Assembly: GCA_020847855.1 (NCBI GenBank)
Contig: JADLBH010000003.1
Coordinates: 1-64,000 of the forward strand
Length of the DNA: 64,000 nt
Direction: 5' to 3'
Source of the DNA: Fimbriimonadaceae bacterium
GTDB lineage: Bacteria; Armatimonadota; Fimbriimonadia; Fimbriimonadales; Fimbriimonadaceae
The position numbers and the translations under genes were made by a program. The notes below the pieces were generated by a model. The model saw only the letters and a program-made list of their open reading frames with translations, was not told where the DNA came from and did no database searches. This document shows, piece by piece, positions 4,885-59,192 of this stretch. The number at the start of each line of letters is the position of its first letter. Within the stretch, counting starts at the first letter, position 1.

Positions 4885-4930
4885 GGCCTATCGTGGCACG
4901 GAAACCGCGCTATGTGCGGGGCTTGAACCC

Positions 4931-5929
4931 ATGACGAGATACGAAGGTACGAGCCTAGGAGCGGGCACGAGGGTCGCGATCGTGGCGAACGATGCGATTG
5001 GAAACTTTGCGGTCGCGACCCCGCTCCTGCAGGTTCTACACGACCGGGGGTGTCGGTGTGACCTTCTGAGCGGCCCACGGATCCGCGAGTTTGCCCAGCT
5101 GTCTCCTTGGATCGAGGCTTCGGTGGACGTGATGGGGAGCCCGATGGCCGAGGCGTGGCACGACCTGCCCCTGGGTAGATATGGGCTCGTGATGAACCTC
5201 GAGCACGCGCCATGGGCGATGGTCGTTTGCGGAGCGCTCGCCGAGGGCGGGGCGCTCGCCGCTGGACCCTGTGCTGGACCTGAGGGCAGGGGCGAGCTCT
5301 CCTACCCAGACGATGCTCGGGGCGACCTTTGGCGAGATCGGGAATGGGCCACCGCGAACCTCAAGGATCGGTACCCGTTCCTCGAAACGGGTCACATCAG
5401 CGAGCTCTTCGTGCGTCTGCTCTACCTTGAAGGTCCGATCCCTGGCTACTCCTTCCCGAGTTCCGAGCCCAAGCTCCCGCTTCCGCCTGCGCTCGTCGCC
5501 CTCTCCGCCTCGCTCCCCAGCAAGCTGTGGCCCATCGAGCATTGGATCGAGGTGTGCCGTGCCCTCGCGTCGAAGCACGGCTCCGTGGGGCTCGTCGGTG
5601 CGGCTCGCAAGGCTCAGGGCCAGTTCTACCGAGGCGCCTCCGACGAGGATCGGCTCGTCGAGGATGCAGGCGTCGTGGATTTGCGCGGACGGCTCACCCT
5701 GCCCGAGGTCGTGGGCGCCCTGGCCAGTGCTGCTCAAGTCGTCACCTTGGACAATGGAATCTTGCACCTCGCGGCGGCAGGCCCCGCCCCGGTCGTCGGC
5801 CTCTTCCGACCTGGGATCGTCCATCTCTGGTGCCCTCGGCGGCCCGGATTGGAGGCGCTCGTGCCGGGGGCAGGCGGGGCGGTCGCGGACATCCGGGTCG
5901 AGGAAGTAATGCGGGCGTGCGGCCTATGA
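4931..5929 (+). CDS. Glycosyltransferase family 9 (heptosyltransferase-like)
   Basis: A 332-residue GT-B enzyme of the ADP-heptose:LPS heptosyltransferase type. The N-terminal half opens with VAIVANDAIGNFAVATPLLQ, a variant of the usual GDxL start in which the acceptor loop keeps the Gly-Asn pair. The C-terminal half has PSKLWPIEHWIEVCRAL, LVDLRGRLTLPEVVGAL and VVTLDNGILHLAAAGPAPVVGLF, the sugar-nucleotide site of GT9. It probably adds a sugar to lipopolysaccharide or another envelope glycan in the cytoplasm. It is followed by a stem-loop at 5940-5958. Donor and acceptor are not determinable. Confidence 0.83.
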   Translation: MTRYEGTSLGAGTRVAIVANDAIGNFAVATPLLQVLHDRGCRCDLLSGPRIREFAQLSPWIEASVDVMGSPMAEAWHDLPLGRYGLVMNLEHAPWAMVVCGALAEGGALAAGPCAGPEGRGELSYPDDARGDLWRDREWATANLKDRYPFLETGHISELFVRLLYLEGPIPGYSFPSSEPKLPLPPALVALSASLPSKLWPIEHWIEVCRALASKHGSVGLVGAARKAQGQFYRGASDEDRLVEDAGVVDLRGRLTLPEVVGALASAAQVVTLDNGILHLAAAGPAPVVGLFRPGIVHLWCPRRPGLEALVPGAGGAVADIRVEEVMRACGL

Positions 5930-5939
5930 GAGGTGCAAC

Positions 5940-5958
5940 CTCGCCCCACCCGGGCGAG
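5940..5958 (+). terminator. Stem-loop after the GT9 gene
   Basis: A perfect 7-bp stem CTCGCCC/GGGCGAG with a 5-nt loop lies 11 bp after the GT9 stop. There is no T-tract, so it may terminate weakly, or act as a 3' stabiliser or leader structure for the next gene. Confidence 0.4.
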
Positions 5959-5985
5959 TAGGAAGGGGCAGGAGAACCTTCTTTC

Positions 5986-6411
5986 GTGAAAGAGATCAAG
6001 GAGCCAGCCGATGGGCTGCACGATATCCCGGCAAGCTGCCCGGTGGCAGGTGGGCCGCTGATCGCCACGGAACTGTCGTCGCTGGACGGATCCATCAAGC
6101 TTCGTGGTCGCTTCCGACTCCCGCCCGCCGCCTTGCTCGACCCGGACAACCACCGGATCCTTGAGGTCTTCCTTCGCTCTCGCGGGGTGATCACCACGAT
6201 GGAGAAGGAACTTGGGCTGAGCTACCCAACCGTGAGGGCGAGGATAGATAACCTGTTGCTGGAGCTAGGTCTACGCCCGTACCGGACGAGCCAGCCTTCT
6301 CGAAGGGAAGCTGCGGCCAAGCGGGGCGTGCTCGAGCAGTTGGAGCGGGGCGAGATCACCGCCGAACAGGCGAAGTCGAAACTAAAGCTGAGGAACGGAG
6401 AAAAGGATTGA
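5986..6411 (+). CDS. DUF2089-family protein lacking the zinc-ribbon cysteines
   Basis: A 141-residue protein starting at GTG 5986. The centre matches DUF2089: a ribbon-like N-terminal part, then ILEVFLRSRGVITTMEKELG and LSYPTVRARIDNLLLELGL, a helix-turn-helix-like segment. In typical members the N-terminal ribbon begins CPxC and has a second CxxC; here it reads CPVAGGPL and the second pair is gone, so zinc binding is unlikely. The C-terminus carries a short helical module (LEQLERGEITAEQAKSKLKL) of the kind that also opens the next protein. Its stop overlaps the TTG start of the DUF4097 gene, so the two are translationally coupled. A DNA-binding or regulatory role is an inference. Confidence 0.75.
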   Translation: MKEIKEPADGLHDIPASCPVAGGPLIATELSSLDGSIKLRGRFRLPPAALLDPDNHRILEVFLRSRGVITTMEKELGLSYPTVRARIDNLLLELGLRPYRTSQPSRREAAAKRGVLEQLERGEITAEQAKSKLKLRNGEKD

Positions 6412-7571
6412 AGGAAGAGATTGCGCGAATTATGAGACTGGTGAAGGAGGGCAAGGTGAGCCCCGAGGACGCGGCCGAGCTCGTGGAGGCGTTCGTCGAG
6501 GCAGAGGAGCCGGTGGCGGTCGGGGAAACGACGCAGTCCGATCCGCTCTCCAAGCTCGTGGCGAACATCGAGAAGGCAGGGAAGGAGATCACGAAAGGGA
6601 TCAACTGGCAAGAGATCTCCGGCCAGATCAAGCAAGGGATTGACAAGGGGTCGGAGGCGCTCCGCAAGGCGACCGACGATGCGCGGAAGTCTGGCGGCTT
6701 CGGGTTCCTCTTCGGCCAGGCAGAGACGCGCCGGATCGAGCTTCCCTTCGAGATCACAAAGTCCAAGACCTTCCGCATTGATGGCGGCAGCGGCGACGTT
6801 CGGGTCTTCGGAGGCTCGAAGGAGGCGAAACTGATCCTCGACGCCAGCCACCGGGCCATGGATCAGGAAGAGGCAAAACGGATGAGCAGCGCCTTTACGC
6901 CTGTGCTCGACGAGAGCGACAAGGTGATCTCGTTCCGGCGCCCGGACGGCCCGAACGTCCGCGTGGACGTGGAGCTGCACCTACCGCGCGGCGTCGCCCT
7001 GGAGCTAGACATCGCCAATGGCGACATTGACGTCAAGGGCTTGAATGGCGCTTGCCGTGCAACCACTCACAGCGGCGACATCACCATCGCCGGTGCGAAG
7101 GGTTCCATCGAGCTGACCACATCTGCGGGGGACGTGGCCGTGAACCACTGCACCGCTGCCTTCCTCGTCGTAGACTCTCGATCCGGCAACGTAGTGCTGG
7201 AGGCCGTCGAGGGTACGGCGAGTGTCAAGAGCTCGAGCGGCAACGTCCAGGTCAAGGCTGCAAAGTGCCAGAGCTTGGCGATCGAGCTCGCCCATGGCGA
7301 CATGGAAGCCGAGCTCTGCGAACCGGTCTCAGGCACCGTCAGCCTGCGCACGGTGAATGGGAGCGTGACCGTCGGTCTACTCGATGGCTCGGATTGCAGG
7401 GTCTCGCTCAGCACGATCAACGGGTCGGTGGCGTCCCAGGTCGAGCTCCAAGACCGTGTGGAAGAAGGCTTGCTCATCACGGGCAAGCTGGGCAAAGGCA
7501 CGGGGAGCTTGGACGTGAGCGCAGTTCGGGGCGACGTGATGCTCCAACTTTGTGACTGCACCGCAAGCTAG
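6408..7571 (+). CDS. DUF4097-family beta-repeat protein with N-terminal SHOCT-like helices
   Basis: A 387-residue protein starting at TTG 6408, within the stop of the preceding gene. Residues 1-35 form a short helical pair (IARIMRLVKEGKVSPEDAAE), about 50-100 are a polar helical linker, and about 110-385 are repeated beta strands of the GDI/GNV type (IANGDIDVKGLNG, THSGDITIAGAKG, SRSGNVVLEAVEG), the DUF4097 right-handed beta fold. No signal peptide is visible. Homologues are often encoded next to small regulators and are thought to respond to envelope or stress signals. Function is unknown; the operon with the DUF2089 protein suggests a regulator-effector pair. Confidence 0.8.
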   Translation: MKEEIARIMRLVKEGKVSPEDAAELVEAFVEAEEPVAVGETTQSDPLSKLVANIEKAGKEITKGINWQEISGQIKQGIDKGSEALRKATDDARKSGGFGFLFGQAETRRIELPFEITKSKTFRIDGGSGDVRVFGGSKEAKLILDASHRAMDQEEAKRMSSAFTPVLDESDKVISFRRPDGPNVRVDVELHLPRGVALELDIANGDIDVKGLNGACRATTHSGDITIAGAKGSIELTTSAGDVAVNHCTAAFLVVDSRSGNVVLEAVEGTASVKSSSGNVQVKAAKCQSLAIELAHGDMEAELCEPVSGTVSLRTVNGSVTVGLLDGSDCRVSLSTINGSVASQVELQDRVEEGLLITGKLGKGTGSLDVSAVRGDVMLQLCDCTAS

Positions 7572-42682: not shown

Positions 42683-43156
42683 TTGCCACGCTGGAAGAAC
42701 TTCTCGATATGGCGCGGCCGCTTCCCGCACTGGCGCGCCGACGCCGTTCTCTACTATGTCGCCGTGAAGCACAAGCGAGCCTTGGAGGACGCCGAGAAGC
42801 GGTACCTCTTTCAAGAGTTCCTGCGTCCCAACGACCGAAAGTGGACGGTGCGAGCCCTCGCTGTCACCGATTCCAAGACCGAGGCCCTGGTGAGCGTCCA
42901 TCACGCACCGCACGGTGCCCCGTTCGAGTTGGCGGACATCGTTCGCCGCGCGGTGAGACGGGCAAGCAAGGCAATCATGGCCGGGAGCGGGGAGCGGTGG
43001 GCACCCCTCTATGAGGAGCCCTTCGACCGGATTATGAGGGACGACGAGGAAACTAGCAGGTTTTTAGAAGAAATGGTAGAGCACGTCTCGCTTGCAGGCT
43101 TGGAACCTGGTAGCGATTACGAGTTCTTCATGGTTCTTACCGAAGAACCTGAATGA
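42683..43156 (+). CDS. Protein of unknown function, coupled to glnB
   Basis: A 157-residue protein whose most likely start is TTG 42683, one base after the glnB stop. The N-terminus is basic and aromatic (LPRWKNFSIWRGRFPHWRAD); the rest is mixed alpha/beta and acidic at the end (SRFLEEMVEHVSLAGLEPGS). No domain is recognised. Adjacency without a gap suggests co-translation with PII and possibly a role in the same signalling. The longer frame back to 42602 would overlap glnB and is rejected. Confidence 0.6.
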   Translation: MPRWKNFSIWRGRFPHWRADAVLYYVAVKHKRALEDAEKRYLFQEFLRPNDRKWTVRALAVTDSKTEALVSVHHAPHGAPFELADIVRRAVRRASKAIMAGSGERWAPLYEEPFDRIMRDDEETSRFLEEMVEHVSLAGLEPGSDYEFFMVLTEEPE

Positions 43157-43241
43157 ATTACCAGGGAAGGCACGTCCCGTCGAGTGGAACATAAGTTCCG
43201 GATCGTCCGCCTGCAACGGCGCAGGTAGACGGAGGCCAACC

Positions 43242-44783
43242 ATGACAACCAAACTGGTCGAAGCCCTTCAAGGGGCGGGTGACGCGGTGTCCAGGGAGTC
43301 GGGCCAGGTGAGTCGTCGGAGACTCGCCACGCTCGGAGCTACTGCCCTCGGCTCGGTCGCGGCCCGCGCTTTTTCCTCAGACCCTCTGCCCTCGCCTGCA
43401 CCGCCACCTGGAGACTACGCGCCCGGCGTGGTCCAGAACTGGACGAACTCGGGGGTTCGCCTTGCCCGACGCATCTCCTTCGGGGTGGATGCCACGTTCA
43501 ACAAGAAGGCTCGGATCCGTGGGTTCACGAGAATCCTGGAAGAGCAGCTCAACTACACCGCCATCCAGGACTCGATCTGCGAGAACGTGGTGAACCGCAA
43601 CTGGCCTCGCGTCAACATGACGATGCGCCAGCTGCGGGACGCAGGCGACGACTGGGTCACCCAACAACACCTCGAGGAAGCGACGATCTACCGCGCGGTC
43701 TTCTCGCAGCGGTTCCTCTATCAACGGATGTGCGAGTTCTGGGCCGACCATTTCAACACCTGGTCCGACAAGGTGGGGGGGCCGCTCCAATTGCACTGGT
43801 ACCGCGACTGCATTCAGCGTCACGCAATGGGGAACTTCTACTCCCTCTTGCGCTCGGTCGCGTTCAGCCCGGCGATGCTGGAGTATCTGGACAACGCGGA
43901 CAACGACTGCAACAATCCCAACGTGAACTTTGCACGCGAGCTCCTCGAGCTGCACAGTGTGAGCGTGAAGAGCGGCTACACCCCCGACGACATCCTGAGC
44001 GTCGCCTTGTGCTTCTCGGGGTGGGGCTGGGAGTGGGATCGGGACAAGGGGACCTGGGGCACCTTCAAGTACAACCCGGACTATCACGTCGTGGGTGCGA
44101 AGGTCGTTTTGGGGAACATCATCCCGAACGGACAACGCGAGCAGGGGGAAGCGGTGCTCGACATCGTCTTCCACCATCCGTCGTGCGCTACCTTCATCTG
44201 TACGAAGCTCTGTCACTACTTCTTGGGGGATGGCGCGACCACGACTCAGATCAACGCGGCAGCGGCCGAGTTCCGCCGGACTAACGGCGACATCCGGTCC
44301 GTGCTGCGCAAGATCCTGACCGTCGCCAACATCATGGGCTCCCAACCCAAGTTCAAGCGACCGTTCCACCTCGTAGTGAACGCTTGCAAGAGCCTTAAGG
44401 TGACGATCAACGACATGTGGAATCTGAAGTACCACCAGATCGGAGGCTGCGGACACTACCCCTTCTACTGGGAGACTCCCGACGGCTATCCCGACCGGTT
44501 CAGCTTCTGGGGCCCGTCCATGGGGCCGAGGCTGAGCTTCGCGTTCGAGATCGCGAACAACCGCGTCTGGGGCGTAGAGGGAGACCTGCCGACGATGATC
44601 GGTGCCGACCGTGACCCCGACCGGGTCGTGCAGATCCTGAACGACGCCTTCTTTGGCGGCGAGATGGCGAACGCCGACCGAGACGCGCTCGAGGCCTATC
44701 TACGGGGCGGCCTCCTCGACGATGAGAGGCTCCGAGGTGCCGCTGCCCTGTGCATCGGCTCGCCGAGCTTCCAATGGTATTGA
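43242..44783 (+). CDS. DUF1800-family protein
   Basis: A 513-residue protein. The N-terminus has a possible Tat-like signal (SRRRLATLGATALGSVAARA) and then the DUF1800 domain: FLYQRMCEFWADHFNTWSDK, YSLLRSVAFSPAMLEYLDNA, NVNFARELLELHSVSVKSGY, VALCFSGWGWEWD and CGHYPFYWETPDGYPDRFSF. Genes of this family are nearly always followed by a DUF1501 gene, as here with a 7-bp gap; the products are exported and may act together, perhaps on a surface polymer, but no activity is established. GGAGGCCAACC precedes the ATG. Confidence 0.92.
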   Translation: MTTKLVEALQGAGDAVSRESGQVSRRRLATLGATALGSVAARAFSSDPLPSPAPPPGDYAPGVVQNWTNSGVRLARRISFGVDATFNKKARIRGFTRILEEQLNYTAIQDSICENVVNRNWPRVNMTMRQLRDAGDDWVTQQHLEEATIYRAVFSQRFLYQRMCEFWADHFNTWSDKVGGPLQLHWYRDCIQRHAMGNFYSLLRSVAFSPAMLEYLDNADNDCNNPNVNFARELLELHSVSVKSGYTPDDILSVALCFSGWGWEWDRDKGTWGTFKYNPDYHVVGAKVVLGNIIPNGQREQGEAVLDIVFHHPSCATFICTKLCHYFLGDGATTTQINAAAAEFRRTNGDIRSVLRKILTVANIMGSQPKFKRPFHLVVNACKSLKVTINDMWNLKYHQIGGCGHYPFYWETPDGYPDRFSFWGPSMGPRLSFAFEIANNRVWGVEGDLPTMIGADRDPDRVVQILNDAFFGGEMANADRDALEAYLRGGLLDDERLRGAAALCIGSPSFQWY

Positions 44784-44790
44784 GGCAACA

Positions 44791-46080
44791 ATGAGCTACG
44801 ACAACAACGCTTGCAAAGAGTACAACCAGCTAAGTCGCCGCCAGGTCGTGGGGGGGATGTCGTTCGCGGCGGTCACCGCCTCGCTCGGCGTCTCCTGGCT
44901 CCCACGCATGGCCTTCGCCCAGAGCGCCTCACAGCGCGACGTGATCATCTCCGTCTACCTGCGGGGCGGGATGGACGGAATGTCCTCGGTCGTCCCCTTT
45001 GGTGACGAGGAGTACTACAACATACGCTCCGCCACGGCCGTGCCGAGGCCGGACAGCAACCAAAGCCGTAAGGCGATCAACCTGGACGGATTCTTTGGCC
45101 TGCACCCTGGCCTTGCCGCCCTGATGCCGGCGTACACTGCCGGTGACCTCGCCCTCGTCCACGCGGTCGGTGCCCAGAACTGGTCAAGGAGCCACTTCGA
45201 CGCCCAACGCTGGATGGAGGTCGGGAAGCGCGAGGACCCGAACCTGACCACCGGCTGGCTCGGCCGTCACTTGATGACGAGCGAGCAGAGAACTGTGAAC
45301 GCCCCCCTCCGGGCGATGAGCCTCACCAACGGCATGGTGCGGACCCTGGGCGGAGCGCCCAAGTCGCTACCGGTGAACGATCCGGACGACTTTGGCTTCG
45401 CTGGCGGGTTCGACAACGAGGACGAGCTCTCGCTCTGGATCGGAAGGCAGTACAACCGGATGAACGATGGTACGACCCCCGCTGTGCGGGACACTCGGAA
45501 CATCATCGCCCGACTCAATGCGATCAACTTCAGCGGCTATAACGGGGCAGGGGGGGCGACCTACCCGAACTCGAACTTTGGCTATGCGCTGAAGTCCACG
45601 GCCGCCATGATGACCGCAAACCTCGGGCTCGAGGCCGTCCACATTGACAAGGACGGTTGGGACACCCACTCGGACCAAGGGGTTCTGGGGGGCGACTTCA
45701 ACTCGCTCATCACGGACCTGGGCGACTCGATGGGCGCCTTCTACCGCGACCTCAAGGCGCGCGGGAACATGCGCTGGACCATGGTCGTCATCAGCGAGTT
45801 TGGCCGGACGGCGATCGAGAACGGTGCCCGCGGCACCGACCATGGCACGGGCAACAGCATGTTCGTGCTGGGCGGCGGGGTGCGCGGTGGCCGCGTGATC
45901 TCGCAGTGGCCCGGCCTCGCCAGAGAGAACCTCTACCAGGAGATTGACCTGGCCTCCACGATTGACTTTCGCGACGTCCTCGCCGAGGTCGTGCGGAAGA
46001 GGCTCCTGAACCGGAACCTGAGCACCATCTTCCCCGGCTACTCGCCGCGGTTCCGTGGCGTCGTGGACATGGTGGCCTAA
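44791..46080 (+). CDS. DUF1501-family Tat-exported protein
   Basis: A 429-residue sulfatase-like-fold protein with a Tat signal (LSRRQVVGGMSFAAVTASLG, ending AFAQ). Family motifs are VIISVYLRGGMDGMSSVVPF, LHPGLAALMPAYTAGDLALV, WSRSHFDAQRWMEVG, DGWDTHSDQG, VVISEFGRTAIENGARGTDH and GNSMFVLGGGVRGG, containing the Asp/His residues arranged as in alkaline-phosphatase-superfamily metal sites. It ends at the hairpin 46092-46123 and forms a two-gene unit with the DUF1800 gene. Confidence 0.93.
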   Translation: MSYDNNACKEYNQLSRRQVVGGMSFAAVTASLGVSWLPRMAFAQSASQRDVIISVYLRGGMDGMSSVVPFGDEEYYNIRSATAVPRPDSNQSRKAINLDGFFGLHPGLAALMPAYTAGDLALVHAVGAQNWSRSHFDAQRWMEVGKREDPNLTTGWLGRHLMTSEQRTVNAPLRAMSLTNGMVRTLGGAPKSLPVNDPDDFGFAGGFDNEDELSLWIGRQYNRMNDGTTPAVRDTRNIIARLNAINFSGYNGAGGATYPNSNFGYALKSTAAMMTANLGLEAVHIDKDGWDTHSDQGVLGGDFNSLITDLGDSMGAFYRDLKARGNMRWTMVVISEFGRTAIENGARGTDHGTGNSMFVLGGGVRGGRVISQWPGLARENLYQEIDLASTIDFRDVLAEVVRKRLLNRNLSTIFPGYSPRFRGVVDMVA

Positions 46081-46225: not shown

Positions 46226-46235
46226 GAGGTCGAAT

Positions 46236-49200
46236 ATGGGCGCTCACGTTCAACTCCGAAGTCTAATCCTGACGGCCGGCGCGTTCGCGCTTGCGGCCCA
46301 GTCCAGCGCTACGGGATTCACCGCCCTTGCCGGCATCCTTGCGGCGGAGGCCCAGAGGCGGGAGCTGCAGCTCGCATCGCCCTATGGCGAAAAGCCCGGC
46401 CCGGTCAAGACCGACACATCGGGCCGCCGTGACGAGTCCCGCTCCAAGTGGCTCGGGCCCCGAGGTGAAAAGGCGCTCCTCGAGGCGCGCATGGCGAGGA
46501 TGCGCGATCGAGCCCCTCTCCAGGCGAACACGGGCGCCTACTTGCTGCCGATGCCGCTTGGCGGCGGCGGCGGCGGCGGGGGCACGGGCTGGGAAGGCGC
46601 GTACGGTGGGTTCATTGTCGGCGGCCCCGGAGGGGGCCAGGGCGGGGGGCCGGGCTATGGCGGCGGTACCGGTGGCTTCAACAACACCGCCACCGGCAAC
46701 AAGCAGACCGTCGTGCCGATCACCGGCTGGGGGGCGCGGGGCGGGCTGGGCGTGGGGCTGAGCCTGGTGCACAACTCGCTCGACAACGACGACTTTGCCT
46801 CGCTCGGCAAGGGCTGGACGCACAGCTACGACGTCTGGATGTCGCACGACCCGAGCATCCCGGACGGGCCGGGGGCGGCCGCGGTCCACTTCGCCGACGG
46901 GCTTTACGTGTCTTACTCAAAGTCGGCAGGGGTGTTCTCGCCTCCGGCGGGGTTCTTCGAGAAGCTCGTCCAGGACGGCTCGGACGATTTCACCTTGACC
47001 CTAGGCGACCAGACCCGGTTCCTGTTCAAGCGCCTGGGGGGCTCTGGGACGACGCTCCTCTACCTGGACAAAGTGAAGGACCGGGCGGGGAACACGGTCA
47101 CCGTGAACCGGCAAGCGGCGACCCCCTACGACGTCACCAGCGTGGTGGACCCGTCGGGCCGCACCCTCACGTTCAGTTACGCCAGCGGTCGGCTGACCGG
47201 CGTGACGGGCCCCGGTGGCCGGGCTTGGACGTTCACGCAGACCGACAACCGGCTCACCAAGGTGACCTGGCCGATCCCGGTCGGCTCGCAGTACACGACC
47301 GAGTTCACGTACACTACAACGCTCGACAACGTCGCGAGCGTGAAGGACAGGCGGGGCTACGTCTGGACCTACGAGTACGACGCCGCGAGCCCGGAGAAGA
47401 TCTGGAAGGAGACTAGCCCGGAGACGCAGAACGGCGGCGAGACCGTGCGATGCGACTACAGCACCTCCTATACGGACGTGGTGTTCGAGAACACGGGGAC
47501 GCCCGCGCTCAAACTGCGGCACAACTACGACGCGAACGGCATGCTTTTGAGCGAGGTGGACGAGGGGGGCTACAGCGTCTCGTACCACTACAACGCCTCG
47601 AACCTGGTGGACCGCTTCACCGACGAGCGGGGGTACGTCTGGGAGGCCACCTACGACGGGAACGGGAACGCCGAGACGCTGAAGAACCCGCTGGGCAAGG
47701 TCTGGAGCTGGGACTACAACGCTACGAACGACCTCTTATGGTCTAAGACGCCGCGGCAGGCGGCTGGGAGCGTCCAGACTACGTACGACTACTGGGGCGC
47801 GGGGCAGGGCTCGGGCAAGCCGGAGGGGTTCCTTCGCAAGGTGACGGACGCGACGGGGAAGGAGCTGGTGAAGGAGGTGCTCTACGACGGCTACTCCCAA
47901 GTGTGGAAGGTGAAGGACGGGCTCGACCGCACGAGCGAGTACACGTTCGACGGCGACGGGGACCTGACCCTGGCCAAGCGGCCCGACGGGACGCAGACGA
48001 CGGCGGTGTACGACGACTACGGCAACCCGACCAGCGTCACCGGGCCGGACTCGCAGACGACGGTGCTCGAGTACGACGGGATGGGGCGGTTTGTCAAGGC
48101 GACCGCGCCCGGCCCGGCCGCGACCGAGGTGGGCCTGGACGGCGAGGGGGGGGTCTCTTGGGCCAAGGACGCGCTGGGCAAGCAGTGGGACCTCTACTAC
48201 GACAAGGCGGGGCGGCTCGTGGAGCGGCGGAGCCCTCGCATTGACCCTGTGACCCTGTCGCGCTACAAGGAGACGTACTCTTACGACGTAAGGGGGCTCC
48301 TGACCAAGGTGACGGACGGGAACGGGCACTCCCGCGAGTACGTCCGCGCGCCTCGGGGCGAGCTCTGGAAGGTGTTGCACGAGGACCAGCGGCACGCGGA
48401 CCCGGCCAAGCACGCTTACGAGGTATGGCAGCGGTACGCGACGGGACAGGTCTACCGGCACCGGGTGCCGCTCTCGCGCGACGGCTCGGGCGACGTGGTC
48501 TACACGTTTATCGCCTACACGATAGACCAGGCGGGGCGGACCACGGCGGTGGACAATCCTTCGCCGGAGGTGGACTCGACGCTTAGCTACGACGACGACG
48601 GGCGGCTTTCTTCGGCCGTGGGCCCGGACGGGACTTCGTCTTGGACGCGGGACCTGGCGGGGCGCACGACGCAGCTCGCGCAGCCGGGCGGGACGCTGAC
48701 CTACGCCTACGACGCGGCGGGGCGGCTGGACACGCTCGCCCAGGCGGGGCGGGGGACGTTCGACTGGGCGTACGACTCGTACGGGCGGGTCGCCTCGCTC
48801 ACCGACCCGGAGGGGAAGGTCACGTCTTTGGAGTACGACACGGCGGGCCGTCCCTGGCGGCGGACGCTGGGCAACGGGCTCAAGGAGGAGCGCTCTTGGG
48901 ACACTCGCGGGCGGCTCTCGAGCTTCGCGCTGAAGAGCGCAGGGGGGGCGACCCTGCGGAGCGAGTCGTGGGGCTACTCGTCGCGGAGCGACGTGCTCTC
49001 GCACACCGTGGACGGCGGGGCCACGGCCTATACCTACGACGACGAAGGGCAGCTGCTTAGCGAGTCGCGGACGGGCTACGCCACGTCCTACACTTACGAT
49101 GGGAACGGGAACCGGAAGGCGCGGGTGGTGAACGGGGCTACCGAGACGTACAGCTACGACGTAGGCGACAAGCTGACGGGGATTACATACTCCGGCGGCG

Positions 49201-50294
49201 GCTCGCGCTCGTTCACCTACGACCTCTCGGGCCGGATGCTCACCGACACCCTGAACACCCGATCGTTCACCTGGACCGCGGACTCCCGCCTCGCGAGCCT
49301 GAACGCGACCACGGGCAACGAGAGCTACACCTACTCAGCGTTCGGCACCCGCGCGAAGGTGGGGACGCGGACGTTCCTACGGGCAGGCGCCGGCGTGACG
49401 GCGAGCGTACTGGACGACGGGTACGCCGACTATACGCCTGGCGTCTCTGAGGTAAGGAGCTCTGTGACGACCTTCTCGCACTGTGGACTGAAGAACACGG
49501 GCGCCCAGACCGACGGCGGCACAACGCCCTCCGTGCAAGCGACCCGGATCTACGATGCCTTCGGCGCGACGCAGTCTTCGAGCGGCACCTGGCAAGGCCC
49601 GTCCGGCTACGCAGGCGCGTTCGGCTACCAGACCGAGGGCTCCGGCCTCCACCTCCTCGGCCACCGCTACTACGACGCAAGCCTCGGCCGCTTCCTCACC
49701 CGCGACCCGATCGGCGACGGCAGTAACTGGTACGCCTATTGCGAGAACGATCCTATGGGCTCGGCAGATCCAGACGGTCTTCTACACGTCGTGATCAACA
49801 TTGGATCCGACGGAACGGGCCGGATGAAAGTGTACGCCGACAACGGTGACGTGATGCCAGTTCCTGGAACCGACGGAGTCCTGTACAGAGAAGCGGACGA
49901 AGGCAATAAGCTGTTCGAGACCGACGCGAGCAACAATACTCGAAACCCCGGTGGAGACCGCAGAAAGCTCGGAACAAACGCACCGTTCCCGGTTGAACGT
50001 GACTTGGAGATTGACGGCGTGTATGATCGAACACGGCCTTCCAAGACGCGGAGCGGCTGGCGTAGTCCCGTGCCGGGTTTAGGCAAGCATTGCCTAATGC
50101 TCATGGACGGCTCCGACGCCTTTCGCCGAGGAACGTGGGTCCATGGAGGAAGAGGTGACAACTGGCGTGCCCCTACCGAGGGGTGCATCAGGATTCGCGA
50201 GGACGATGCAGGATGGTTTCACTTTGTCTTCGATTTGAACAAGAACAACGGGAACAGGCACCGACTTAGCGTCTTTGACGCTCGCGTGAACTAA
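46236..50294 (+). CDS. Secreted RHS-repeat protein with C-terminal L,D-transpeptidase-like domain
   Basis: A 1352-residue polymorphic-toxin-type protein. A signal peptide (RSLILTAGAFALAAQSSATG) is followed by a Gly-rich stretch (about 105-145), an N-terminal module beginning TVVPITGWGARGGLGVGLSL, and YD/RHS repeats from about 230 to 1150 (for example GLDRTSEYTFDGDGDLTLAK). The core closes with RYYDASLGRFLTRDPIG and ADPDGL (Asp1178). The 171-residue C-terminal tip carries WVHGGRGDNWRAPTEGCIRI, with His1303 and Cys1317 as in YkuD/Tlde1-like L,D-transpeptidases. The tip is less G+C-rich than the core, as expected of an exchangeable toxin. The next gene overlaps the stop and is the candidate immunity gene. 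Confidence 0.85.
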   Translation: MGAHVQLRSLILTAGAFALAAQSSATGFTALAGILAAEAQRRELQLASPYGEKPGPVKTDTSGRRDESRSKWLGPRGEKALLEARMARMRDRAPLQANTGAYLLPMPLGGGGGGGGTGWEGAYGGFIVGGPGGGQGGGPGYGGGTGGFNNTATGNKQTVVPITGWGARGGLGVGLSLVHNSLDNDDFASLGKGWTHSYDVWMSHDPSIPDGPGAAAVHFADGLYVSYSKSAGVFSPPAGFFEKLVQDGSDDFTLTLGDQTRFLFKRLGGSGTTLLYLDKVKDRAGNTVTVNRQAATPYDVTSVVDPSGRTLTFSYASGRLTGVTGPGGRAWTFTQTDNRLTKVTWPIPVGSQYTTEFTYTTTLDNVASVKDRRGYVWTYEYDAASPEKIWKETSPETQNGGETVRCDYSTSYTDVVFENTGTPALKLRHNYDANGMLLSEVDEGGYSVSYHYNASNLVDRFTDERGYVWEATYDGNGNAETLKNPLGKVWSWDYNATNDLLWSKTPRQAAGSVQTTYDYWGAGQGSGKPEGFLRKVTDATGKELVKEVLYDGYSQVWKVKDGLDRTSEYTFDGDGDLTLAKRPDGTQTTAVYDDYGNPTSVTGPDSQTTVLEYDGMGRFVKATAPGPAATEVGLDGEGGVSWAKDALGKQWDLYYDKAGRLVERRSPRIDPVTLSRYKETYSYDVRGLLTKVTDGNGHSREYVRAPRGELWKVLHEDQRHADPAKHAYEVWQRYATGQVYRHRVPLSRDGSGDVVYTFIAYTIDQAGRTTAVDNPSPEVDSTLSYDDDGRLSSAVGPDGTSSWTRDLAGRTTQLAQPGGTLTYAYDAAGRLDTLAQAGRGTFDWAYDSYGRVASLTDPEGKVTSLEYDTAGRPWRRTLGNGLKEERSWDTRGRLSSFALKSAGGATLRSESWGYSSRSDVLSHTVDGGATAYTYDDEGQLLSESRTGYATSYTYDGNGNRKARVVNGATETYSYDVGDKLTGITYSGGGSRSFTYDLSGRMLTDTLNTRSFTWTADSRLASLNATTGNESYTYSAFGTRAKVGTRTFLRAGAGVTASVLDDGYADYTPGVSEVRSSVTTFSHCGLKNTGAQTDGGTTPSVQATRIYDAFGATQSSSGTWQGPSGYAGAFGYQTEGSGLHLLGHRYYDASLGRFLTRDPIGDGSNWYAYCENDPMGSADPDGLLHVVINIGSDGTGRMKVYADNGDVMPVPGTDGVLYREADEGNKLFETDASNNTRNPGGDRRKLGTNAPFPVERDLEIDGVYDRTRPSKTRSGWRSPVPGLGKHCLMLMDGSDAFRRGTWVHGGRGDNWRAPTEGCIRIREDDAGWFHFVFDLNKNNGNRHRLSVFDARVN

Positions 50295-51052
50295 TGGCGC
50301 TCCGCAAAGACTGGCTCGTGTTCCTGATCGTCGCGTGTGGATGCTCTGGGCCGACGAGTCGAGGTTCAGCATCGCTCGGTGCTCGCGAGAAGCTCCGTGC
50401 CATGCTGGCTCAAGAGCCAGGCGAAGGCGGTGGAGAGCATGTTCTGTGGGGCTGGAGCCCTGCAGGCGTCCAGGAGCTGTCGGGCCACCTGGACGAGATT
50501 CGTGAGCTTGCTGGGGATCCGACGATCCCTGCGCGGGAACAAGCAATTGCGTGCGCCTTCTTCGTCGAGTTTTCGCCGCCGACGGCACGAAAAGTCAAGA
50601 GTGATCTGTGGTACAGCGAAGCCATGCGTCTTGGTCCGTGGTGGGACGTCCTTTCAGCCCGAAGAGATGGCAAGGGACTGGCGGCTTGCCAGGTTGCGTA
50701 CGCGACGCTCTTCAAGGTTGCGAAGGAGCATGAGGAGCCAGCGCTGGTCAGAGAATTTGTCACATTACGGACGGATGGAGCTGAAGGCGAGGGCCACGTG
50801 TACGACGTTGTTCAGGTCATGGAGCGCAACCCACGAGCCTTTGCCCTGAGCTTGATCCCAGACTACGAAGCGGGCAACAGGGACGGAGTCTGCATATCAA
50901 TGGGGAAGCTCAGCAATTTGAAGTTTTTCGCGGAAGACGATCCAGAATTGAGGAGCCGAATCAAAGACCTGGCTTCCAGAGTGAAAGACTGGGAGCCTTC
51001 AATAGAGAAAGCTATTATGACGAAGGAAATCTCTTGGCTTCTAGGGAACTAA
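50294..51052 (+). CDS. Candidate immunity lipoprotein for the RHS toxin
   Basis: A 252-residue protein whose ATG shares a base with the RHS stop (TAATG). The N-terminus is a lipoprotein-type signal (LVFLIVACGC; Cys about 15 or 17). The rest is helical and polar, with no recognised domain: LSGHLDEIRELAGDPTIPAR, AFFVEFSPPTARKVKSDLWY, ACQVAYATLFKVAKEHEEPA. Immunity proteins are normally encoded directly after the toxin tip, and against a peptidoglycan-acting toxin they must reach the periplasm, which a lipoprotein does. Composition is like the toxin tip, less G+C-rich than the RHS core. The immunity role is inferred from position and location signal only. Confidence 0.6.
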   Translation: MALRKDWLVFLIVACGCSGPTSRGSASLGAREKLRAMLAQEPGEGGGEHVLWGWSPAGVQELSGHLDEIRELAGDPTIPAREQAIACAFFVEFSPPTARKVKSDLWYSEAMRLGPWWDVLSARRDGKGLAACQVAYATLFKVAKEHEEPALVREFVTLRTDGAEGEGHVYDVVQVMERNPRAFALSLIPDYEAGNRDGVCISMGKLSNLKFFAEDDPELRSRIKDLASRVKDWEPSIEKAIMTKEISWLLGN

Positions 51053-51060
51053 GCGCAAAG

Positions 51061-51471
51061 CAACTTACGGGGAGGATGACCAGCGACTCGCTGAACTCGC
51101 GGGCGGTCGTTCGGCATGCCGCCTCGCAGCTGGCGTCTTTGACTGCGAACACGGGGAACGAGCCGTACACCTATTCCGCCTTCGGAACGAAGGCGAAAGG
51201 GGGGACGCGCACCTTCCTCCGCGCAGGGGCCGGGGTGACCGCCTCCGTGCTGGACGACGGCAATGCGAAGTACACTCCGGGCGTGAGCGAAGTGCGCTCC
51301 GGGACGACTACGTTCAGCCATAGCGGCCTCAAGCACATGGGCGCGCAGACTGACGCGCCCATGTCCGGCTCGCCCGCACGAGCGGCGACTCGCTTGATGG
51401 CGAGCAGACGTTGTTCAAGCACCCAATGCCGGGCCAAAGGTTCCGACCCTCCGTTGAAGCGGGAACCCTGA
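51061..51471 (+). pseudogene. Orphan RHS tip fragment
   Basis: From about 51061 to 51360 the translation (TGRMTSDSLNSRAVVR, then TYSAFGTKAKGGTRTFLRAG, ASVLDDGNAKYTPGVSEVRS) matches residues near 1000-1090 of the intact RHS protein upstream, after which similarity stops. The frame continues to 51471 without recognisable content; a different frame stays open to about 51532. There is no signal peptide, repeat core or start signal. It lies 8 bp after the immunity gene and looks like a displaced remnant of another RHS C-terminal end. Confidence 0.7.
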
Positions 51472-55070: not shown

Positions 55071-56074
55071 GAATCCTCCATATCGCCTCCTCGATGCCCG
55101 ACGATTGGGGAGGGATCGAGCGCTACATCAGCTATCTCTCGGAAGCTCAGGTGCGGGCTGGCCAAAGCGTTGCGGTGGCTGCCGTCCCTGGATCGCCGCT
55201 CGCATCGAGGCTCGTTGCCCGGCAAGTTCCTGTGCGCCTCGCCAACAAGTACGACCTCCGAGCCTTGGGGACGTTCCTACGAATCTTTCGGGCCGAGCCG
55301 TGGGACGTCGCGGTGGCGCACTTCTCGCCCGACTATCTCGTGCCCGCATGGGCGGCGCGGCTGGCGGGCGGCCCTGCGATGATCCTCACCCGCCATGTCG
55401 CCGTTCCGCTCAAACCCGCCCGTGCGCGGCAGTACCGCGGCTTGTACCGAGGATTCGTGGCCGTATCAGGGGCAGTCGCGGAGACGGTGTGCGCCGCTGG
55501 CATCCTAGTATGCAAGGTCGCTCACCCAGGGGTTCCAGACCCTGGAGTGCGATCATTTCCTCGACCGCCCTTGCGAGCTTGCGTCGTGGGCCGCCTGGTT
55601 CGCGAGAAGGGACAACGTATCGCCATGGAAGCTTCGGTCGGCTCGAAGTGGGGATGGGACTTTGCCGGTTCTGGCCCGGACGAGGATGCTCTGCATCGGA
55701 TGCTGGGATCGAACACTCGGATGCTAGGGTCCGTGAGCGACCCGGCGGGCGTCATGGCCCGCTCGCACGTCGTCGTGATCCCCAGCACGTGGGTGGAGGC
55801 GTTCGGCCTCGTCGCGGTGGAAGCGATGGCGGTGGGGAGGTGCGTTGTCGCCTCTGCCCGTGGTGGCTTGGTCGAGATCGTTCAACCTGGGGTCACGGGG
55901 CTTCTTGTGCCGCCGTCCGATCCCGCCGCCCTGCGCGAGGCGATGGAGACGATGGATCTCGATCGGGCGCGAGCGATGGGCCATGCCGGCAGGCTCCGGT
56001 ACGAGGAGGGGTTCACGGTCGAAGCGATGGAGCGCCGAACCACGGCAGCCTACGAAACGATTCTCGCGAGCTAG
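55061..56074 (+). CDS. Glycosyltransferase family 4
   Basis: A 337-residue GT-B retaining glycosyltransferase. ALRILHIASSMPDDWGGIER and YISYLSEAQVRAGQSVAVAA begin the acceptor domain; ACVVGRLVREKGQRIAMEAS starts the donor domain, and PSTWVEAFGLVAVEAMAVGR holds the E-x7-E signature. It probably extends an envelope polysaccharide. The start at 55061 aligns with the family; the longer frame would lie within the esterase gene. The stop overlaps that of kdsA by 4 nt (CTAG). Confidence 0.92.
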   Translation: MALRILHIASSMPDDWGGIERYISYLSEAQVRAGQSVAVAAVPGSPLASRLVARQVPVRLANKYDLRALGTFLRIFRAEPWDVAVAHFSPDYLVPAWAARLAGGPAMILTRHVAVPLKPARARQYRGLYRGFVAVSGAVAETVCAAGILVCKVAHPGVPDPGVRSFPRPPLRACVVGRLVREKGQRIAMEASVGSKWGWDFAGSGPDEDALHRMLGSNTRMLGSVSDPAGVMARSHVVVIPSTWVEAFGLVAVEAMAVGRCVVASARGGLVEIVQPGVTGLLVPPSDPAALREAMETMDLDRARAMGHAGRLRYEEGFTVEAMERRTTAAYETILAS

Positions 56075-56907
56075 GTGGCGGGGGAGGTCGCCCAGACCGC
56101 CTGGATCGCACGCCGTATCGCGATCGCCTGCCGTAGGAGATCACGGAAGCTGGCGAGCGGCCACTGCGTGGCCTGGTCGCTCACGGCGTTCGCTGGATCC
56201 GGGTGTACCTCGACGAAGAGGGCGTCAATTCCGACGGCGGTAGCGGCGCGGACGAGGGCGGGTACAGACTCTCTGGCGCCGCCCGAGCTCGTCCCGCCTG
56301 CTCCAGGTCGTTGGGCGGAGTGGGTGGCATCGAAGCAAACCGGCACTCCAAAGGAACGCATCGTCTCGAGCCCCGGCATGTCCACGACCAGGTTGTTGTA
56401 GCCGAACGTCGTACCCCGTTCCGTCAGCATGACCCCGGCAGCATGGAAGGTGTCGAGCTTGGCCACGATGTTCCGGGCGTCTGCGGGCGCAAGGAACTGG
56501 CCCTTCTTGACGTTGACCGGCTTGCCCGTTTCCGCTGCCGCCTCGAGTAGGTCGCTCTGCCGGCAGAGAAAGGCCGGGATCTGGAGCAGGTCAACATATT
56601 CCGCGACGCTGGCCGCCTGGCTGGGGAGGTGGACGTCCGTGGTCGTCGGAACCCCCGCGGCCACTCCTGCGTCACGGATCCATTCCAAGGCGTCCTCTCC
56701 GGGCCCCCGGTCGGAACTGGCCGAAGTTCGGTTCGCCTTATCGAAGCTCGCCTTGAACACGTAATGAATCCCCAGCTCCCGGCATATCCCGGCGCAGGCC
56801 GTTGCGACCTCGACGCAGAGGTCGAACGACTCCGCCGTACACGGGCCCGCGATCACGGTGAGGGCGTCGGACCCGACTTCGAACCCTGGAAGCTCCAGCG
56901 TTCTCAC
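56071..56907 (-). CDS. kdsA: 3-deoxy-8-phosphooctulonate synthase (KDO-8-P synthase)
   Basis: A 278-residue TIM-barrel aldolase condensing PEP with arabinose 5-phosphate, the first committed step to KDO of lipid A core. VIAGPCTAESFDLCVEVATA, YVFKASFDKANRTSASSDRG, LLQIPAFLCRQSDLLEAAAE, VNVKKGQFLAPADARNIVAK and the C-terminal VEVHPDPANAVSDQATQWPL are diagnostic. Asp and His residues for a metal and Cys in AGPC suggest a metal-dependent type. Start is GTG 56907 with a 4-nt overlap (GTGA) into the dsbD stop. It supports an outer membrane with LPS. Confidence 0.95.
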   Translation of the reverse strand: MRTLELPGFEVGSDALTVIAGPCTAESFDLCVEVATACAGICRELGIHYVFKASFDKANRTSASSDRGPGEDALEWIRDAGVAAGVPTTTDVHLPSQAASVAEYVDLLQIPAFLCRQSDLLEAAAETGKPVNVKKGQFLAPADARNIVAKLDTFHAAGVMLTERGTTFGYNNLVVDMPGLETMRSFGVPVCFDATHSAQRPGAGGTSSGGARESVPALVRAATAVGIDALFVEVHPDPANAVSDQATQWPLASFRDLLRQAIAIRRAIQAVWATSPAT

Positions 56908-59192
56908 TGGGCGGCCGCCACGCCTTCCTCGATCCACTGGATGAACGGGCCCGGCCCGTTCGTCGCCCCCCCTTGGATCGTCACGACGGTACCGTCAGGC
57001 TTTTGGAGGACGTAGACCGGGTTCGTCACACTCTTGGTGAGCTTTTCCCGGAGGGCGGAGTTGGCACGGCTGGACTCGTCCTCTCGGTCGGTCACGAGCC
57101 AGACCGGAACCATGGATCCGATGAGTTCGGTGACCTTGGGGTCGGGAAAGACGGTGTTCTCCATCACGCGGCAGTTCACACAGAAGTCGCCAGTGAAGTT
57201 GAGGAAGAGCATCTTGCCCTCTGCAGTTGCGGTCGCGACGGCTAGGTCGTAGTCCTTGACCCAGGCGATGTGACCGTCCTTGGGTGCCTCGCCCGCTTTA
57301 GAGGCCACTGCGGAGGGGCCCCTTCCTGGGTAAGGATCCGGGGGGAGGAACCCAACCATCTGGCCGAGCGGGGCACCGTTGATCGCCGTGAGCAAGTAGG
57401 TCGCGAGACCGATGTTCAGGAAGCCAAAGACCCGCCGTCCCACGCCGATCTTGGGTTCGGGGCCGTCGGCATGGGGCAGGTTCATCGCACCCACGAGCCA
57501 GAAGCCCGCCATGGCGAACACAACGACCCAAACCGCGAGGAAGGCAGGCTTAGTGAGAAGCCCCCAGTTGAATGCGAGGTCCACGTTGCTCATGAACTTG
57601 AGCGCGGCCGCGAGTTCGAGGAACCCCATGTATGCTTTGGAGGACGCGAGCCATGAGCCAGATTTTGGCAGGGAGGCCAACCACTGGGGAAAGAGGGCGA
57701 GAAGATAGAACGGCACCGCGAAAGCAAAGCTGAACGCCAGCATTCCCAGGATCGGGTAGAGCACGTTGCCCGTCGCGACCGAGACCAATAAGGTACCGAC
57801 GAACGGAACCGTACATGTGAAGGAAGTGAGCGTGAACGCCACGCCCATGAGGATCGGCCCCGCCAAACCGGACTGCGTTCGAGAGCCCTTTTGGAACTTG
57901 TCTACGAACCCTTGCGGCAACGTGAAATTGAAGACACCAAAGAGCCCGAGCGCGAGCACCACAAAGACCATCGTGAGACCGATGTTCACCCAAGGGTTGG
58001 CGGCAAGCCGCTGGATCCCGGAGGCTCCGAAGAGCAGGCTCACTGCCAGGCCCAGCAGGGTGAAGGTGAGCATGATTCCCAGGCTATAGGCAAGGGCACC
58101 ACGGACGTCCTTCTTTCCCCCTTCCCCTCGCTTGCTGAAGAAGCTGACCGTGATCGGGATCATGGGCCAGACGCAGGGCGTGGCCAGTGCCGCGATGCCG
58201 GCGAGGAAGGCGAGCAAGAGGTAGGGAGCCAGGCCCTGAACCATCGCGCTTTGGATCGCGCTGGCCGTGGCGTCACCCCCAAGCGGGGCGGCCCCGGGCT
58301 TGGTCGCTGGGTCTGGGGGCGGTGGGCTCCCGGCCTGGGTCGTGGCAACCGGTGGCTCCGCGGGAGGCTCTGCCGGCTGCACAGGCTGCTCCACTGCAAA
58401 TGAGAGCGTCCGCTGCACCGTAGCGCCGTTCGCTCCGCGAGCCGTAAGTGTGAGGGTCGTGTTCTGCGTGAGGGTGAGTGACTGGGTGCCTACCGGATTG
58501 ACGTCGTAGCTCTGAGAGCCGTCGCTCAGCTGCACGGAGACCGCATTCTCGCTGCTCCAAGAGACCAGCACCGTCTCGCCGGACTTCACGCTGGAGACCG
58601 CGGAAGCGAAGCTCTTGATGCTCACCGGCCCGGAGACCCTGGTCGGGTCAATCGGCCTTACATCGGGGGGAGGCTGGCTCAGCACCGCGCCGCCAGAGGC
58701 GAGGCTCATCGTGCCCGTGACGGTCTCGCTGGTGGGCGGCCAGCAGTTCGTGTCGTCGCAGATCTGATAACCGACCTTGACACTGGGCTTGAACGGTCCC
58801 GGTTGGTCCGGGAGCGTAAGCTTGAAGGGCACCTCGATCGTGCCTTCGTACATCCCGAGAGGCTGGTCGAATCCAGGAAACGGCTTGGGCGTGCCCCTGG
58901 GATATCGGATCCCCGTAATTTTGGTGTTGGCGCCGCCGGACTCGATTGTGAAAGGAATGTTGGATGGGTCGGAGGGTGGGTTCTGGTACGCGTGGAAGGA
59001 GGGTGGGAAGGTCGCCCTAATCTTGGCGTCCACCGTGCTCCCAGCGACCGCCTTGCCGCTAGGGAGGACCAACTCCAGCCTCGGCTTGGGCGAGGACGGT
59101 TGCGACCAAGCCGTGACGACGGCGGACGCGAGCAAAAGGACGGCGAGGGTTTTCACGTGGAGGGGGTCCCGCAAGCCAAAACTCGCTCGCAT
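56904..59192 (-). CDS. dsbD: Thiol:disulfide interchange protein DsbD with inserted Ig-like/Pro-rich segment
   Basis: A 762-residue electron transporter passing reducing power from the cytoplasm to the periplasm. Signal peptide to about 30; N-terminal DsbD-alpha domain (about 35-165) with the Cys pair in VGYQICDDTNCWPP; then an Ig-like stretch (SSVKSGETVLVSWSSENAVS) and a Pro-rich linker (about 180-305) not found in ordinary DsbD; a TM domain of eight helices (about 315-610) with redox Cys in ATPCVWPMIP and TSFTCTVPFV; and a C-terminal thioredoxin-like domain with NFTGDFCVNCRVMEN. ATG 59192 starts 32 bp after sdhB. Confidence 0.92.
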   Translation of the reverse strand: MRASFGLRDPLHVKTLAVLLLASAVVTAWSQPSSPKPRLELVLPSGKAVAGSTVDAKIRATFPPSFHAYQNPPSDPSNIPFTIESGGANTKITGIRYPRGTPKPFPGFDQPLGMYEGTIEVPFKLTLPDQPGPFKPSVKVGYQICDDTNCWPPTSETVTGTMSLASGGAVLSQPPPDVRPIDPTRVSGPVSIKSFASAVSSVKSGETVLVSWSSENAVSVQLSDGSQSYDVNPVGTQSLTLTQNTTLTLTARGANGATVQRTLSFAVEQPVQPAEPPAEPPVATTQAGSPPPPDPATKPGAAPLGGDATASAIQSAMVQGLAPYLLLAFLAGIAALATPCVWPMIPITVSFFSKRGEGGKKDVRGALAYSLGIMLTFTLLGLAVSLLFGASGIQRLAANPWVNIGLTMVFVVLALGLFGVFNFTLPQGFVDKFQKGSRTQSGLAGPILMGVAFTLTSFTCTVPFVGTLLVSVATGNVLYPILGMLAFSFAFAVPFYLLALFPQWLASLPKSGSWLASSKAYMGFLELAAALKFMSNVDLAFNWGLLTKPAFLAVWVVVFAMAGFWLVGAMNLPHADGPEPKIGVGRRVFGFLNIGLATYLLTAINGAPLGQMVGFLPPDPYPGRGPSAVASKAGEAPKDGHIAWVKDYDLAVATATAEGKMLFLNFTGDFCVNCRVMENTVFPDPKVTELIGSMVPVWLVTDREDESSRANSALREKLTKSVTNPVYVLQKPDGTVVTIQGGATNGPGPFIQWIEEGVAAAQ

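What the first reader, a model, noticed from the sequence alone, without database searches (positions are those of the whole stretch)
46236..51052. RHS polymorphic toxin with L,D-transpeptidase-like warhead and an overlapping lipoprotein as candidate immunity
The RHS core ends in the usual RxLTRDPIG...DPDGL boundary, followed by a 171-residue tip with a His1303/Cys1317 HGG...TEGCIRI motif as in YkuD/Tlde1-type L,D-transpeptidase-like toxins. The next gene starts inside the RHS stop (TAATG) and encodes a lipoprotein, the compartment needed to block a peptidoglycan-directed toxin. The RHS protein itself has a signal peptide, so delivery would differ from cytoplasmic type VI-loaded RHS proteins. 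The combination of a Sec-exported RHS with an LDT tip and lipoprotein immunity in this kind of bacterium may be undescribed.
Basis: partly seen in the sequence, partly recalled or inferred. Interest (0 to 1): 0.72.

Follow-up and report, generated by a model that had tools for sequence, protein, structure and literature searches.

The report
Exported Rhs toxin with cell-wall warhead
A bacterium related to Fimbriimonas encodes a large exported Rhs protein whose swappable tip resembles enzymes that cut and re-link the bacterial cell wall, followed by a membrane-anchored protein that probably protects the producer; this is a well-supported new example of a toxin class predicted in 2012, in a phylum where it had not been listed.

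Summary
The Rhs ORF (46236-50294) carries 15 Rhs repeats, a canonical core boundary and a 171-residue tip. The tip is a divergent L,D-transpeptidase (YkuD) domain: 20.4 bits against a cut-off of 23.4, but a 37%-identical homologous tip passes the cut-off. Five homologous tips, all on Rhs cores in the same order, share invariant His, Thr, Gly-Cys and Arg. The overlapping lipoprotein (50294-51052) is a plausible immunity protein: both G020 homologues of this tip are followed by proteins weakly related to it. Tip and lipoprotein form one imported cassette (GC3 0.64/0.63 against about 0.89 in the core), with a displaced Rhs-core remnant just downstream. Relatives carry the same core with about 30 unrelated tips, mostly behind export signals; neither T6SS nor phage-type sheath genes were found here. 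The class is not new: Zhang et al. 2012 (PMC3482391) described Rhs toxins with L,D-peptidase tips, Sec export and secreted or transmembrane immunity proteins. New here are the phylum (Armatimonadota), this tip subfamily (T-x-GC, lacking the His of SHGC) and its lipoprotein partner. Toxicity, immunity and the route into target cells are untested.

The parts
46236..50294 (+). Full-length Rhs (YD-repeat) protein, 1352 aa, with N-terminal signal-peptide-like segment (residues about 9-24)
   Evidence: GAGG at 46226-46229
46236..49778 (+). Signal segment, Gly-rich linker and Rhs core, ending in RFLTRDPIG...DPDG
   Evidence: RHS_repeat x15, Rhs_assc_core at residues 1106-1182; 300 residues before the boundary have GC3 0.89, whole core 0.90
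49779..50291 (+). Variable tip, 171 aa: divergent YkuD/L,D-transpeptidase domain; His at 50142-50144 (H1303), Cys at 50184-50186 (C1317)
   Evidence: GC3 0.64
50294..51052 (+). Candidate immunity protein: predicted lipoprotein, 252 aa, mostly helical in a low-confidence model, overlapping the Rhs stop (TAATG), probably translationally coupled
   Evidence: GC3 0.63
51007..51396 (+). Degraded remnant of an Rhs core (matches residues 970-1105, 61% aa identity; nt part 51145-51355 about 72%), probably left by tip displacement

Best explanation
This is a polymorphic Rhs toxin with its immunity gene in a Fimbriimonas-related diderm. The protein is exported by Sec and the Rhs repeats form a shell carrying a 171-aa tip. 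The tip is a cysteine L,D-transpeptidase/L,D-carboxypeptidase of the YkuD superfamily. Once in the periplasm of a neighbouring cell it would acylate stem peptides through Cys1317 (with His1303) and trim, exchange or wrongly re-link them, weakening the wall. The overlapping gene makes a lipoprotein held in the producer's envelope that binds and blocks the tip. Tip and lipoprotein arrived together as a cassette by recombination into the Rhs 3' end; the remnant of an Rhs core lies downstream. Shown by sequence: Rhs core, tip homology and conserved active-site residues, export signals, gene overlap, cassette composition, remnant, absence of detected T6SS and phage-type sheath genes. Inferred: enzymatic activity, toxicity, binding by the lipoprotein, release of the tip, and how the protein crosses outer membranes.
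For: YkuD match to the tip; homologous tips at E 3e-33 to 2e-10 on Rhs cores in three other genomes, three of five matching YkuD at best E 3.9e-6 and one above the Pfam cut-off. Tip profile recruits an ordinary YkuD protein at E 1.8e-5. Profile-profile match centred on the active site, E 4e-4, against 0.08-0.9 for shuffled columns. AF2 model (pLDDT 68) has as its two best PDB matches an L,D-transpeptidase (4lpq) and DpaA (8ikr). Polymorphism: same core in 43 of 101 relatives; 35 distinct tips fall in 30 unrelated clusters; tips have lower GC3 than cores in 13 of 13. Signal-like N-termini in 15 of 19 full-length Rhs proteins. Immunity: both G020 LD tips are followed by genes homologous to each other (E 5e-15) and weakly to the window lipoprotein, which ranks first of 1345 ORFs against their profile. 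No T6SS sheath, no phage-type sheath, secretins present, KdsA in the window.
Against: The tip alone is below the YkuD cut-off and matches mainly over the active site. The fold search is not significant (E 0.1) and the model is mediocre. Lipoprotein homology to the G020 partners is marginal (profile E 0.34; pairwise E 7e-4 to 0.02 depending on settings), and G093 and G079 tips are followed by unrelated proteins. The reading frame of one G020 partner lacks a signal peptide, consistent with a frameshift. No experiment exists, and no delivery machinery is known for this Rhs family.
Confidence: 0.78

Rival explanations
1. The tip is an L,D-transpeptidase-like domain used in housekeeping: the Rhs protein is a surface structure that the tip attaches covalently to the producer's own peptidoglycan, and the lipoprotein is an accessory factor, not immunity.
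For: L,D-transpeptidases are known to attach lipoproteins to peptidoglycan (established knowledge); both proteins carry export signals; relatives have ordinary YkuD enzymes.
Against: The tip position is occupied by about 30 unrelated domains in the same Rhs family, tips are composition-shifted, tips recur in displaced orphan modules and a core remnant lies downstream: the pattern of toxin cassettes, not of a conserved wall anchor.
Confidence: 0.1
2. Active L,D-transpeptidase-like toxin, but the overlapping lipoprotein is not the immunity protein (protection comes from elsewhere, or the lipoprotein helps assembly or export).
For: Homology between window lipoprotein and G020 partners is weak; G093 and G079 tips have unrelated downstream genes.
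Against: Stop-start overlap, shared composition with the tip, the same position next to homologous tips in G020, and export signals in several members; unrelated immunity genes for related tips are common in these systems.
Confidence: 0.15
3. The locus is decayed or non-functional (the downstream remnant and frameshifted relatives show degeneration), so nothing is delivered.
For: Core remnant at 51007-51396 is broken; the frame of one G020 partner is interrupted.
Against: The window's Rhs ORF, tip and lipoprotein are all intact with conserved catalytic residues.
Confidence: 0.07

Closest known systems
Tox-LD-peptidase of Rhs polymorphic toxins (Zhang et al. 2012, PMC3482391)
   Same: YkuD-type domain as C-terminal tip on Rhs repeats, linked immunity gene, T2SS/Sec among listed export routes, some immunity proteins secreted or transmembrane
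   Different: Phylum not in that list; Thr in place of the listed Ser; partner shows no Pfam match to the listed Imm16 or Imm57 and is a lipoprotein, which that paper reported only for Imm65 with Tox-JAB-1
Tlde1/Tldi1 type VI effector pair (PF10908; PMC9638812)
   Same: L,D-transpeptidase-like antibacterial toxin with an immunity partner; H...(S/T)xGC motif
   Different: No PF10908 match; no T6SS; carried on an Rhs core; lacks the His next to Gly-Cys whose loss in Tlde1a spared exchange but cut crosslinking. A Tlde1-like tip does occur on a sister Rhs protein (L104)
Housekeeping YkuD L,D-transpeptidases (PF03734)
   Same: Catalytic His/Cys/Arg region, invariant Pro and Gly positions before it
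   Different: Rhs tip; T-x-GC where the relatives' enzymes whose motif was read have SHGC
Rhs/CdiA-type toxin/immunity cassettes with displaced orphans (PMC3150448, PMC3967940)
   Same: Constant core, variable tip plus immunity gene, orphan modules downstream (titles and abstracts seen; details from own knowledge)
   Different: T6SS Rhs effectors lack signal peptides (own knowledge); this family has Sec-type signals in a diderm without a detected T6SS

Membership tests
Rhs polymorphic toxin | Rhs/YD repeats ending in the Rhs-associated core | tested here: met
Rhs polymorphic toxin | Same core carries unrelated C-terminal tips in relatives | tested here: met
   35 tips in 30 clusters; 43 of 101 genomes with the core
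Rhs polymorphic toxin | Immunity gene directly downstream that neutralises the tip | tested here: inconclusive
   Adjacent overlapping gene present, weak homology to partners of homologous tips; neutralisation not testable here
Rhs polymorphic toxin | Tip is toxic to bacteria | not testable with these tools
   needs expression assay
YkuD / L,D-transpeptidase (PF03734) | Profile match above the curated cut-off | tested here: inconclusive
   Window tip 20.4 of 23.4 bits; homologous G020 tip 27.3 bits, above
YkuD / L,D-transpeptidase (PF03734) | Catalytic His, (S/T)xGC cysteine and following Arg | tested here: met
   Invariant in five tips
YkuD / L,D-transpeptidase (PF03734) | L,D-transpeptidase fold | tested here: inconclusive
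   Top two PDB matches are L,D-transpeptidase family, prob 0.63 and 0.60, E 0.1; pLDDT 68
Tlde1 effector (PF10908) | Profile match | tested here: not met
   No match at E<=1
Tlde1 effector (PF10908) | T6SS delivery | tested here: not met
   No VipB in own genome or 40 relatives
Imm16/Imm57 immunity families | Pfam match of the lipoprotein | tested here: not met
   No such match at E<=1

The most novel reading that the evidence does not exclude
Fimbriimonadia use a family-wide antibacterial system of Sec-exported Rhs proteins, independent of T6SS and known phage-tail-like injectors, that displays and exchanges dozens of warheads; two separate kinds of L,D-transpeptidase-like tip (this one and a Tlde1-like one) attack the walls of neighbours, with envelope-located immunity proteins. 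How an exported Rhs shell in a diderm crosses two outer membranes would be a new delivery question.
Probability: 0.35. Interest if true: 0.6.

Novelty: new member of a known kind. Interest (0 to 1): 0.38.

Why it matters
It extends predicted Rhs L,D-peptidase toxins to Armatimonadota, gives a small defined tip subfamily with an altered motif (T-x-GC without the His) and supplies a compact toxin/lipoprotein pair that can be tested in laboratory E. coli. The wider family, exported Rhs proteins with about 30 warheads and no detected T6SS, makes the open question of Sec-exported Rhs delivery in diderms approachable.

Tried and rejected
Viral contigs and plasmids gave no relatives. Weak tip hits in G016, G084 and G150 were rejected as chance because their frames encode unrelated proteins. 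PHROGs and PADLOC gave nothing informative. Sequence search of the PDB gave only insignificant hits, among them 4xzz (Csd6 per PMC9638812) at E 0.79. The lipoprotein model (pLDDT 50) was judged too poor for a fold search. The immunity-family hit in G090 sits beside an Rhs orphan, but the sequence upstream of it is too degraded to say whether an L,D-transpeptidase tip once stood there.

Full report
What is there. The window lies in a 2.53-Mb, 41-contig genome. A relative from the same family is a Fimbriimonas-assigned groundwater MAG: G020 contig C10 has the same length and content as JACOSL010000011.1. The phylum name Armatimonadota follows from established knowledge of Fimbriimonas. The ORF at 46236-50294 has the stated length, motif and residue numbers. 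Pfam and NCBIfam find 15 RHS_repeat stretches and the Rhs-associated core just before the tip. The next gene starts within the Rhs stop codon and begins with a short signal peptide and a lipobox-like IVAC.

The tip. On its own the tip is a sub-threshold YkuD match (20.4 bits, cut-off 23.4). Five lines of evidence lift it. (1) Four homologous tips occur in three other genomes, twice in G020, once each in G093 and G079, all at the C-terminus of Rhs ORFs. (2) One of them is above the YkuD cut-off (27.3 bits over profile positions 18-137), and three of five match YkuD. (3) In all five, His122, Thr133, Gly135-Cys136 and Arg138 (tip numbering) are invariant, along with an upstream Pro and Gly. (4) A profile of the five recruits an ordinary YkuD protein elsewhere in the phylum (E 1.8e-5) and aligns to a YkuD profile at the active site (E 4e-4; shuffled controls 0.08-0.9). 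(5) The AlphaFold model (pLDDT 68, pTM 0.69) has as its two best PDB matches an L,D-transpeptidase and DpaA, though at E 0.1. The tips have T-x-GC with x = E, G, R or L. Housekeeping enzymes from relatives whose motif could be read have SHGC. In Tlde1a, changing that His left D-amino-acid exchange intact but strongly reduced crosslinking (PMC9638812), so exchange or carboxypeptidase activity is the likelier chemistry; this is inference.

The partner. Both G020 tips are followed by genes homologous to each other (E 5e-15). The second has a clear signal peptide. The frame of the first lacks one; a signal-like segment appears to lie in another frame just upstream (read by eye), consistent with a frameshift. 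The window lipoprotein is weakly related: pairwise E 7e-4 without and 0.02 with composition correction, and first of 1345 ORFs against the G020 profile but only at E 0.34. A wider search, whose profile includes the window protein, adds members in G090, G009 and G063. G090's is a signal-bearing protein next to an Rhs orphan, while G063's is interrupted. G093 and G079 tips have unrelated downstream genes. Immunity is therefore likely but not demonstrated.

Cassette history. GC3 is about 0.89-0.90 in the Rhs core, 0.64 in the tip and 0.63 in the lipoprotein gene. Tip GC3 is lower than core GC3 in 13 of 13 full-length proteins (this one included) where the boundary could be placed. Directly downstream lies a broken Rhs-core fragment, 61% identical to residues 970-1105. 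G020 has the same arrangement: Rhs plus tip 1 plus partner, then orphan core pieces with other tips and partners.

Family context. The core occurs in 43 of 101 relatives at E <= 1e-40, as full-length proteins and as arrays of short orphan modules. Thirty-five distinct tips from the loci examined fall into 30 clusters at E 1e-4; the sample is small, was partly chosen through the L,D tip, includes a few tips from other Rhs cores (L014, L030), and one pair is the same tip fetched twice. Fifteen of 19 full-length proteins have a strongly hydrophobic signal-like N-terminus by a simple hydropathy threshold, which is not a trained signal-peptide predictor. A sister Rhs protein in G042 has a tip matching Tlde1_dom (E 1.3e-6, 29.3 of 30.1 bits) followed by a predicted multi-helix membrane protein.

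Delivery. No VipB was found in this genome or 40 relatives, and no Phage_sheath_1 in this genome. Three secretins are present, and the window encodes KdsA, consistent with a Kdo-containing outer membrane. So T6SS loading is unlikely. The Sec signal would place the Rhs protein in the periplasm or on the surface; how it leaves and enters a target is unknown.

Comparison with what is known. Zhang et al. 2012 list Tox-LD-peptidase (PDB 1ZAT; residues H, S, C) in Rhs toxins exported by T2SS, T6SS or TcdB/TcaC, with Imm16 and Imm57, in Actinobacteria, Bacteroidetes, Proteobacteria, Chloroflexi and Firmicutes, and note secreted or transmembrane immunity proteins for it. Lipoprotein immunity was reported there only for Imm65 with Tox-JAB-1. 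The present pair works like that class and meets its sequence criteria; the differences are lineage, motif detail and partner family. In the held open-access library only two papers contain both Rhs and YkuD, none combines Fimbriimonas with YD repeat, and the one paper with Armatimonad, Rhs and toxin is about another superfamily. Subscription literature was not searched.

Verdict. A sound, well-placed finding whose novelty is moderate: new member of a known kind, in an unlisted phylum, inside a striking but apparently unstudied family of exported Rhs proteins.

Noticed in passing
G000 C10, about 60625-68480 (locus L030), minus strand: A second, different Rhs array in the same genome: four Rhs modules whose short tips (three measured at 126-136 aa) are rich in hydrophobic stretches, with small membrane-protein-like ORFs nearby; possible membrane-acting warheads.
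   Followed up: partly
L104 (G042 C1:2123300-2131660), Rhs ORF 3107-7102 minus strand: Sister Rhs protein with a Tlde1-like tip (PF10908, E 1.3e-6) followed by a predicted multi-helix membrane protein: a second kind of L,D-transpeptidase-like warhead in this Rhs family.
   Followed up: partly
L114 (G090 C11 end), minus strand: A signal-bearing relative of the immunity family next to an Rhs orphan whose tip looks JAB-like, itself followed by a small exported protein; the sequence upstream of the relative is degraded.
   Followed up: partly
L013 8500-9222 (G020): The partner gene of the first G020 tip appears frameshifted: a signal-like segment lies in another frame upstream of the conserved part.
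   Followed up: partly
G032 C1, about 2598836-2626518: One relative has at least ten Rhs-core matches packed within about 28 kb, some repeated at identical scores: an unusually large orphan array.
   Followed up: no
43092-46080: DUF1800 and DUF1501 genes directly upstream of the Rhs gene on the same strand; DUF1501 protein has a twin-arginine-like start (QLSRRQVVGG).
   Followed up: no
56071-56937: KdsA (3-deoxy-8-phosphooctulonate synthase) in the window, consistent with a Kdo-containing outer membrane.
   Followed up: yes
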